Positions 3,532 to 33,786 of a DNA stretch of 33,786 nt are shown here, piece by piece; position 1 is the first letter of the stretch, and each line of letters opens with the position of its first letter. The DNA is taken from contig JAFZPV010000023.1 in the NCBI GenBank assembly GCA_017552535.1, forward strand, positions 1-33,786, in the 5' to 3' direction. A program made the position numbers and the translations under genes. The stretch comes from Clostridia bacterium. Its GTDB lineage: Bacteria > Bacillota > Clostridia > Christensenellales > Aristaeellaceae. The notes below the pieces were generated by a model. It made no database searches, was not told the origin of the DNA, and saw only the letters and a list, made by a program, of their open reading frames with translations.

Positions 3532-3539
3532 TTTACACG
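3532..3539 (+). repeat. Left copy of the 8-bp direct repeat flanking element copy 1 (candidate target duplication)
   Basis: TTTACACG here is repeated exactly at 3858-3865, on the other side of the element. The last G is shared with the first base of the inverted repeat, so the duplication may be 7 or 8 bp. Confidence 0.65.
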
Positions 3540-3857
3540 GGACTGTTGCAGAAGCCTGAAATCATAAGCGGGGGGGGATTGGAGGGTTGCCCCTCCAATT
3601 TCAATCCGCAGGGCCGGCTTTGCCGGCACGAGGAAGAAAAATCACGAAGGGCAGCTTGCCGCCCGGAAGTGATTTTTCTTTCCTTACGGTTTTTGCGCCC
3701 GAAAAACCCGCAGGTTTTTTAGCAAAAACTGAAAACCTGTCACTGGAGCCGGAAACATGAGGCGTTTCGGATCTTAGTCAAGCAAACGGTTCCAAAGACC
3801 AAACCGCTGAAAATGAAATCCCATTTCGTTTTCAGCGAGGGGCTGTGCAACAGCCCC
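3539..3857 (+). mobile_element. MITE-like 319-bp structured repeat, copy 1 (complete)
   Basis: The left end GGGACTGTTGCA (3539-3550) is the reverse complement of the right end TGCAACAGCCCC (3846-3857) at 11 of 12 positions. Flanking TTTACACG repeats suggest insertion by transposition. Inside are serial hairpins: TTGGAGGG/CCCTCCAA (3579-3586, 3591-3598), AGAAAAATCAC/GTGATTTTTCT (3635-3645, 3669-3679), GTTTTTGC/GCAAAAAC (3689-3696, 3722-3729) enclosing AAAAACC-CGCA-GGTTTTT (3702-3719), a 15-bp stem at 3805-3837, and the terminator at 3839-3860. The same order recurs in copies 2 and 3 with different stem sequences. It encodes no protein. The ends resemble those of IS6/IS26-family elements, but no transposase is in the window. 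Confidence 0.75.
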
Positions 3858-3860
3858 TTT
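3839..3860 (+). terminator. Intrinsic terminator formed by the right end of copy 1
   Basis: GGGGCTG (3839-3845), a 5-nt loop, CAGCCCC (3851-3857), then TTT. It would insulate the aspartokinase promoter 13 bp downstream from upstream transcription. Confidence 0.55.
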
Positions 3861-3865
3861 ACACG
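3858..3865 (+). repeat. Right copy of the 8-bp direct repeat flanking element copy 1
   Basis: TTTACACG, identical to 3532-3539. It directly follows the right inverted repeat of the element. Confidence 0.65.
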
Positions 3866-9170: not shown

Positions 9171-9206
9171 TCTTTTTGCATCCGTTTCTTTCGGGATTGT
9201 TGCAGC

Positions 9207-9243
9207 AAACGGGAGAATATGCCGGCGGCATATTCTCCCGTTT
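9207..9243. terminator. Bidirectional terminator between hprK and the nitroreductase
   Basis: AAACGGGAGAATATGCC and its exact reverse complement form a 17-bp perfect stem around a 3-nt loop (GGC), with T-rich tails on both strands. It serves the converging genes on either side. Confidence 0.85.
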
Positions 9244-9265
9244 TCCGCAGCATTCCTTTCCGACT

Positions 9266-22774: not shown

Positions 22775-23093
22775 AGGGCTATTGCAGAAGTCGGGAAAAT
22801 CCAACGGGTGGTTTGGAGGGATTTACCTCTCCAATTTCATTCCGCAGGGCCAGCTATGCCAGCCAGAGGAGCGATTTTTGCGAAGGCGAGCTTGCCCACC
22901 GGGAACAGAAAATCGTTTCTTGCGGTTTTTGCGCCCGAAAAATCCCGCAGGATTTTAACAAAAACTGAAAACCTGTTGCACAAACCGGAGAAAGGTCCTC
23001 GTCTCGGATAGATTGGTTCTATTGTATTCAAAACTAAACCGCTGGAAATGAAATTATACTTCATTTCCAGCGAGGGGGCTGTGCAGCAGCCCC
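22775..23093 (+). mobile_element. MITE-like 319-bp structured repeat, copy 2 (complete)
   Basis: Same length and hairpin order as copy 1. The ends AGGGCTATTGCA (22775-22786) and TGCAGCAGCCCC (23082-23093) are inverted repeats at 9 of 12 positions. Stems: TTGGAGGG/CTCTCCAA with one G-U pair; AGCGATTTT/AAAATCGTT with a G-U pair; GTTTTTG/CAAAAAC (22925-22931, 22959-22965) enclosing AAAATCC-CGCA-GGATTTT (22939-22956); and CGCTGGAAATGAA/TTCATTTCCAGCG (23040-23072). No target duplication is seen (flanks CAAAAAAC and TTTTGCCT), so it may be older. It begins 18 bp after the GH36 stop and ends 9 bp before the -35 box of the next gene. Confidence 0.75.
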
Positions 23094-33567: not shown

Positions 33568-33786
33568 GGAGCTGTTGCATAAGTAGGGAAAACCCACTCG
33601 GTGGTTTGGAGGGGTTTATCCCTCCAATTTCAATCCGCAGGGCCAGCTTTGCCGGCTCGAGGAGCGATTTTTGCGAAGGCGAGCTTGCCCGCCGAGAGCA
33701 AAGAATCGCTTCATTGCAGTTTTTTCGCCCGGAAATGCCCGCAGGCATTTCAGAAAAAACTGAAAACCTGTTGCACAAGCTGGTGA
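33568..33786 (+). mobile_element. MITE-like structured repeat, copy 3 (right part beyond the window)
   Basis: Left end GGAGCTGTTGCA (33568-33579). The first 219 bp align with copies 1 and 2. Stems: TTGGAGGG/CCCTCCAA; AGCGATTTTTGC paired with the GCAAAGAATCGCT region; CAGTTTTTTC/GAAAAAACTG (33717-33726, 33753-33762) enclosing GAAATGCC-CGCA-GGCATTTC (33732-33751). The right 100 bp, with the terminator and inverted repeat, lie outside. The left flank is CATAAAAA. Confidence 0.7.

What the first reader, a model, noticed from the sequence alone, without database searches (positions are those of the whole stretch)
3539..3857. A dispersed 319-bp inverted-repeat element family, three copies in 30 kb
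Copies at 3539-3857, 22775-23093 and 33568-window end share order, spacing and ends. The two complete ones are exactly 319 bp. All lie between genes in the same orientation and none encodes a recognisable protein. Three copies in under 34 kb suggests a high-copy family genome-wide. It matches no repeat family I know by name.
Basis: seen in the sequence. Interest (0 to 1): 0.82.

Follow-up and report, generated by a model that had tools for sequence, protein, structure and literature searches.

The report
Mosaic hairpin repeats in gut bacteria
The three copies belong to a large family of short, apparently mobile DNA repeats, built from exchangeable hairpins, that sits between genes and often at gene ends in many genomes of one bacterial family.

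Summary
Copies lie at 3540-3857, 22776-23093 and 33569-33786 (cut by the contig end); I count 53 places in the genome. The element is a chain of hairpins between 11-12 bp terminal inverted repeats. Its core (hairpins a-d) covaries strongly. A covariance model of the core matches 60 of 120 genomes of the same family (30 of 50 genera), 8 of 200 of the order and 1 of 398 in a phylum draw, each count including the window's own genome.

Best reading: a non-autonomous MITE/BOX-like mosaic element. Copy 1 has an 8-bp target duplication, and five orthologues of the next gene lack the element upstream. The gene at the right end faces the element in 64 of 84 cases. Modules are lost, swapped and nested.

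Against: 19 of 21 copies show no duplication of 7 bp or more; three transposase families were absent. Whether one strand is selected as RNA is undecided. No match in Rfam, or by the narrower searches of plasmids, phages and viral contigs. Unusual is the reach: one core, different outer parts, across a bacterial family.

The parts
3532..3539 (.). left copy of the 8-bp target-site duplication TTTACACG
   Evidence: direct reading
3540..3857 (+). complete element, copy 1 (318 bp)
3540..3550 (+). left terminal inverted repeat GGACTGTTGCA
3578..3599 (+). hairpin a
   Evidence: direct reading; in other genera the sequence differs and a hairpin is usually kept
3605..3634 (+). hairpin b: TCCGCA...GAGGA closing stem and internal loop, nearly invariant in the alignments
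3636..3678 (+). hairpin c, with AGCTTGCC top loop (3653-3660) conserved among copies of this hairpin type
   Evidence: other hairpin c types
3687..3731 (+). hairpin d, with GCCCG internal loop; site of the extra module X in other copies
3735..3804 (+). right linker; begins with an inner repeat of the terminal sequence (CTGTTGCACAAG in other copies), where the about 122-bp short form starts
   Evidence: L079, L082
3805..3837 (+). hairpin e; terminator-like on the - strand in copy 2 and many other own copies, but not flagged in copy 1
3839..3857 (+). right terminal hairpin GGGGCTGTGCAACAGCCCC (right terminal inverted repeat)
3858..3865 (.). right copy of the 8-bp target-site duplication TTTACACG
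22776..23093 (+). complete element, copy 2 (318 bp), no target duplication seen
33569..33786 (+). copy 3, cut by the contig end

Best explanation
A family of short, non-coding, non-autonomous mobile elements (MITE-like, modular in the way of BOX elements). An enzyme encoded elsewhere, not found here, recognises the 11-12 bp terminal repeats and pastes the element into a staggered 8-bp target, duplicating it (inferred from one exact and one near case plus vacant orthologous sites). The interior is a chain of palindromic modules that are lost, swapped, inverted and inserted into each other. Insertions survive mainly at the 3' ends of genes; in this genome hairpin e often looks like an intrinsic terminator for the gene that runs into the right end. 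Shown: copy number, ends, module exchange, covariation, gene-end bias, vacant sites for copy 1. Inferred: the transposase, the staggered cut, the selfish nature.
For: 53 places, 14 at contig ends, as near-identical repeats break assemblies. Copy 1 has TTTACACG on both sides and L020 a 7-bp repeat: 2 of 21 copies with 7 bp or more, permutation P = 0.019. Orthologues of the adjacent aspartokinase gene in G002, G004, G005, G006 (86-89% aa identity) and G007 (75%) have no element in 862-1500 bases upstream, by BLAST with four element queries and by motif (5 of 5). The joined flanks of copy 1 align across the junction with G005. One element begins inside another in L065 and L224. Shortened forms: L079, L082, L236. 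Module X lies on the host strand in hairpin d in this genome and G005, inverted in hairpin b in G006, and both ways in G002. Convergent gene pairs 29 of 79 against 25 of 167 in relatives' loci, P = 1.7e-6.
Against: 19 of 21 curated copies show no duplication of 7 bp or more, among them L018, L029 and L030 of a closely similar subfamily; counted at 5 bp or more the excess is not significant (P = 0.18). No transposase of three tested families: PF13751, PF12762, PF13610, each 0 of 13 genomes; others were not searched. No gene-bearing relative with these ends was seen, but only in the stretches I read. The gene on the far side of copy 1 is not syntenic, and the alignments of its flanks to G002, G004 and G006 are weaker across the junction than to G005. 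In L224 the outer element does not resume after the inner one, so that is a junction, not a clean insertion.
Confidence: 0.66

Rival explanations
1. Host-owned structured 3'-end element: copies serve the host as transcription terminators or mRNA 3'-end stabilisers and are kept for that.
For: Right neighbour runs into the element in 64 of 84 cases (P = 1.6e-6), its stop codon often in a narrow window at the right end. Terminator-like signal on the - strand in 26 of 43 own copies against 8 of 43 on the + strand. Strong covariation.
Against: The - strand signal is found in 0 of 22 copies in G012, 6 of 22 in G006, 3 of 14 in G002 and 2 of 5 in G005, and not in copy 1 itself. Left neighbours show no bias, 46 of 88. 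The five aspartokinase orthologues lack the element.
Confidence: 0.17
2. REP-like element moved as single-stranded DNA by a Y1 (HuH) transposase acting on the hairpins.
For: Palindromes throughout, no general target duplication; a Y1 transposase is present in the genome.
Against: Y1 genes in 3 of 9 genomes only, none found in G002, which has at least 24 copies. The one in this genome lies inside a copy of the element, which it splits, with its own end hairpins, like an IS200. Terminal inverted repeats with an 8-bp duplication are not features of that mechanism (general knowledge).
Confidence: 0.07
3. A conserved non-coding RNA family amplified in the genome.
For: Covarying stems with near-invariant internal loops (TCCGCA/GAGGA) and an 8-nt loop AGCTTGCC. 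GU against AC pairs: 21 to 4 in the alignment not fitted to structure (my count from the table; 7 of the 21 at one pair) and 30 to 6 in the model-fitted one. Hairpin a alone 29 to 12, P = 0.012.
Against: A strand-neutral count over all stems gives GT 135, AC 113 (P = 0.18), with hairpins b, d and e even; a cruder version 492 to 417. Folding energy does not differ between strands relative to shuffles. No promoter-like site inside copy 1, one weak one on the - strand in copy 2. Not in Rfam.
Confidence: 0.1

Closest known systems
BOX elements of Streptococcus (PMC3049150, passages read)
   Same: Modular with optional interior modules; terminal repeats and target duplications; over-represented between convergent genes; inserted into one another; some supply the stop codon of the neighbouring gene. 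In S. suis the same boxB interior occurs between two different pairs of end modules.
   Different: Here five or more hairpins instead of boxA/B/C, and one core in 30 of 50 sampled genera of a family; that paper finds BOX in S. pneumoniae and S. mitis, related elements in S. suis, and almost none in other streptococci. No sequence comparison with BOX was run.
SPRITE of S. pneumoniae (PMC3049150, passages read)
   Same: Terminator-like, close to gene 3' ends, between convergent genes.
   Different: A single long stem with a U-rich tract; here a long chain, terminator-like in part of the copies only.
REP/BIME and ERIC (recalled; PMC3733652 on REPs seen in a search listing only)
   Same: High-copy intergenic palindromes, mosaics, near gene ends.
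   Different: No tie to a Y1 transposase found here; longer, with terminal repeats.
IS6 and IS1595 insertion sequences (recalled)
   Same: 8-bp target duplication; IS6 ends contain CTGTTGCA, as here.
   Different: No transposase of either Pfam family in 13 genomes each.

Membership tests
MITE | short and non-coding | tested here: met
   318 bp; ORFs of 100 aa or more overlapping copy 2 have no counterpart in copy 1
MITE | intergenic position | tested here: met
   40 of 45 copies without a called gene across the assumed bounds; 5 rows (L005, L020, L072, L079, L082) list an overlap, at least L079 and L082 because the short form was given full length; some gene stops lie a few bases inside
MITE | terminal inverted repeats | tested here: met
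   GGRCTGTTGCA and its complement at the two ends of many copies; some copies have degraded ends
MITE | target-site duplication | tested here: inconclusive
   7-8 bp in 2 of 21 copies, P = 0.019; at 5 bp or more P = 0.18
MITE | cognate autonomous element with the same ends | tested here: inconclusive
   none seen; PF13751, PF12762, PF13610 0 of 13 genomes each; other families not searched, genome 77% complete
BOX | boxA/boxB/boxC sequence modules | not tested
   no BOX model was compared; filed as working alike, not as a member
BOX | modular, optional interior modules | tested here: met
   module X present or absent, short forms
REP with RAYT | co-occurring Y1 transposase gene associated with the repeats | tested here: not met
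   Y1 in 3 of 9 genomes; own gene is an IS200-like insertion in a copy
any Rfam family | score at or above the gathering cut-off | tested here: not met
   0 in the window; in six loci at E up to 5 nothing reached its cut-off; RF02937 gave 21.1 bits against 58.6 on the core of L050
ISfinder-listed element | match to a listed element | not testable with these tools
   ISfinder not on hand

The most novel reading that the evidence does not exclude
One structured core (hairpins a-d), older than the genera of this bacterial family, has been re-mobilised again and again with different ends in different genera, and its stems are kept palindromic by DNA-level arm exchange rather than by RNA selection: a long-lived chassis for non-autonomous elements, moved by an unknown enzyme that may recognise folded DNA.
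Probability: 0.2. Interest if true: 0.8.

Novelty: new variant of a known kind. Interest (0 to 1): 0.52.

Why it matters
Short bacterial repeats are usually known from a species or its near relatives (general knowledge; BOX is an example). A repeat whose folded core can be modelled across 30 genera, with dozens of copies in several genomes, lets one ask how such elements persist and who moves them. It also carries a caution: covariation in a bacterial repeat need not mean an RNA, since here stems appear to change in blocks. Practically, the repeats coincide with assembly breaks (14 of 53 places at contig ends) and deserve annotation in genomes of this family.

Tried and rejected
Y1/RAYT mobilisation: 3 of 9 genomes, and the local gene lies inside a copy. 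IS1182-, IS1595- and IS6-type transposases (Pfam PF13751, PF12762, PF13610; the match of Pfam to IS family is partly recalled): 0 of 13 genomes each. RNA-strand selection: alignments favour it (21:4:6), strand-neutral counts do not (492:417; 135:113). The control on 147 terminator-like hairpins gave 94:57, P = 0.003, but its ratio does not differ significantly from the element's (Fisher P = 0.14), so the question stays open. A regex search for both ends mis-registered them, so I curated 21 copies by hand; the others were left out for truncated, degraded or unread ends. The first genome contigs pattern found nothing, a second found 54 stretches. A conserved terminator role is not upheld outside this genome. 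Literature: searches listed no paper whose title or abstract start describes this repeat; two papers were looked into by passages (PMC3049150; PMC2267715). The library lacks most subscription journals.

Limits: gene calls are my own codon-score calls. The background for convergent pairs comes from 30 relatives' loci that themselves hold elements. Model searches over many genomes used strict filters and capped candidates (24, 7 and 14 scored per genome), so copy counts are lower bounds and misses are possible. R1 was built partly from genomes that it then matched.

Full report
What is there. The three copies are real, in register and on one strand. Read from the terminal repeats, copies 1 and 2 are 318 bp (3540-3857, 22776-23093); copy 3 starts at 33569 and is cut by the end of the contig, which is the window itself. 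The genome (2.39 Mb, 62 contigs, 77% complete) gave 48 BLAST pieces. Adding 13 stretches found by end pattern, by model and in fetched loci, I count 53 separate places, about one per 45 kb, 14 of them within 100 bp of a contig end. A lone end hairpin (L225) is not counted.

Anatomy. From left to right: terminal repeat GGRCTGTTGCAnAAG; hairpin a; the nearly invariant TCCGCA, hairpin b, GAGGA; hairpin c with the top loop AGCTTGCC in its commonest type; hairpin d; a linker that starts with a second copy of the terminal sequence (CTGTTGCACAAG in many copies); hairpin e; and the right end, itself a hairpin, GGGGCTGTGCAACAGCCCC. Variants: a form of about 402 bp with a three-hairpin module (X) in hairpin d; a form of about 122 bp beginning at the inner terminal sequence (L079, L082); in G006 a copy lacking most of b-d (L236); a lone end hairpin (L225). 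Hairpin c occurs as at least three types. Module X lies on the host strand in hairpin d in this genome, in G005 and in G002, and inverted in hairpin b in G006 and G002. So modules move within the family.

Structure. On 30 chosen diverse cores, 96.3% of cells in 22 pairs form standard pairs, 122 cells are changed on both sides (shuffled mean 40), and the covariation score is 0.530 against 0.183 in shuffles (0 of 500 reach it) and at most 0.119 in slid versions. Two measures are weaker: 14 pairs with a change on both sides against 12.1 in shuffles (24 of 500 reach it), and 30 further pair types against 29.7 (274 of 500). This fits change in blocks: in hairpin c the arms GAAAAATCAC/GTGATTTTTC of some copies look swapped as GCGATTTTTGC/GCAAAAATCGC in others, so there are far fewer independent events than 122 (my reading). 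Is one strand selected as RNA? GU to AC is 21 to 4 in the unfitted alignment (counted; 7 of the 21 at one pair) and 30 to 6 on 58 rows of the model-fitted one, which favours it. A strand-neutral count over 398 distinct stems gives 135 to 113 (P = 0.18); hairpin a 29 to 12 (P = 0.012), the others even or not significant. A control on 147 terminator-like hairpins gave 94 to 57 (P = 0.003), but the two ratios do not differ significantly (Fisher P = 0.14). The question stays open; that palindromy is kept at the DNA level is inference.

Distribution. In the order 8 of 200 match: five of the same family, own included, and three in two other families. In a phylum draw 1 of 398 matches, the own genome, with only 7 candidates scored per genome. 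In G012 and G016 the order a-b-c-d-e is kept while the outer parts differ (by reading). Named records with an exact hairpin-b pattern include Christensenella sp. UBA4379, Candidatus Faecaligallichristensenella faecipullorum and rumen or gut Clostridia assemblies (54 stretches). Equal contig lengths suggest that G012 is UBA4379 and G005 is RGIG1533 from goat abomasum. Copy 3 as a blastn query found nothing in plasmids and phages; one exact pattern found nothing in viral contigs.

Mobility. Copy 1 has TTTACACG on both sides. Among 21 hand-curated copies two have a repeat of 7 bp or more (8 and 7 bp; permutation P = 0.019); at 5 bp or more the same two count and P is 0.18. The gene to the right of copy 1 is an aspartokinase (Pfam AA_kinase and ACT; the name is my reading). 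Its orthologues in G002, G004, G005, G006 (86-89% identity; that of G002 is split in two pieces) and G007 (75%) have no element upstream: four element queries hit only the own locus, and neither the core nor the end motif occurs in the 1500 (G005: 862) bases before the start. The joined flanks of copy 1 align through the junction with the promoter region of G005, less well with the others. The gene on the other side (sigma-70-like) was not found in those loci. One element begins inside another in L065 and L224; in L224 the outer one does not resume. I take this as transposition of a non-autonomous element. The enzyme is unknown: PF13751, PF12762 and PF13610 are absent from 13 genomes each, and Y1 transposases occur in 3 of 9; the one in this genome belongs to an IS200-like element that has landed in a copy.

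Place among genes. Over 95 copies in four sets (own 40, G012 20, G006 20, G002 with G005 15), the gene at the right end runs towards the element in 64 of the 84 cases with a called gene (P = 1.6e-6), the gene at the left in 46 of 88. By set the right-hand figures are 23 of 31, 12 of 20, 16 of 19 and 13 of 14. The stop codons of these opposing genes cluster: measured from the core start, 17 of 23 lie at 235-272 bases in the own genome, where the element ends at about 253; 15 of 16 at 223-264 in G006; 8 of 13 at 243-267 in the G002 set; 9 of 12 at 166-194 in G012. Convergent pairs are 29 of 79, against 25 of 167 adjacent pairs in 30 relatives' loci (P = 1.7e-6) and 13 of 103 pairs not spanning an element in the same loci plus the window. 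In L006 the stop codon of the neighbouring gene lies inside hairpin e (read). Terminator-like signals on the - strand of the right part occur in 26 of 43 own copies (+ strand 8), 6 of 22 in G006 (5), 3 of 14 in G002 (2), 2 of 5 in G005 (0) and 0 of 22 in G012 (4); copy 2 has one, copy 1 does not. A terminator role is plausible here, not general.

Comparison. The nearest kind is the BOX/SPRITE type of Streptococcus: modular, terminal repeats, duplications, excess between convergent genes, mutual insertion, stop codons supplied to neighbouring genes, and in S. suis one interior module between two kinds of ends (PMC3049150, passages read). This family works like it but is not filed as a member; no sequence comparison was run. 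It differs in the number of hairpins and above all in its reach over a bacterial family with a common core and different outer parts. Literature searches listed no description of this repeat; ISfinder could not be searched.

Verdict. A real, high-copy family, not found described in what I could search; a new variant of a known kind; interest 0.52. The boldest reading not excluded is a family-wide structured chassis re-mobilised with different ends (0.20).

Noticed in passing
L075 (G000:C6, about 1285-2010 of the locus): An IS200-like element with a Y1 transposase of about 160 aa and its own GC-rich end hairpins is inserted in a copy of the repeat.
   Followed up: partly
L030, L016, L081, L224, L234, L235, L239, L207: Module X (about 95 bp, three hairpins) appears in two positions and two orientations inside the repeat, as if a second, nested mini-element.
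   Followed up: partly
L078 and L247 (G005): Another dispersed repeat: several units around GGCGGCAGATTGCCGCCGCTACG near each other.
   Followed up: no
L176, L179 (G012); L225 (G000): Lone hairpins made of the same end sequence (GGCTGTTGCA...), two followed by T-rich stretches like terminators; possibly collapsed elements or the source of the ends.
   Followed up: no
window 9194-9256: An inverted repeat with 31-nt arms, 87% complementary, one base between them; not part of this family.
   Followed up: no
flanks of L001, L010, L012, L063, L064, L081: TTTCACG or TTTACACG-like words recur beside the ends of several copies; a possible target preference.
   Followed up: no
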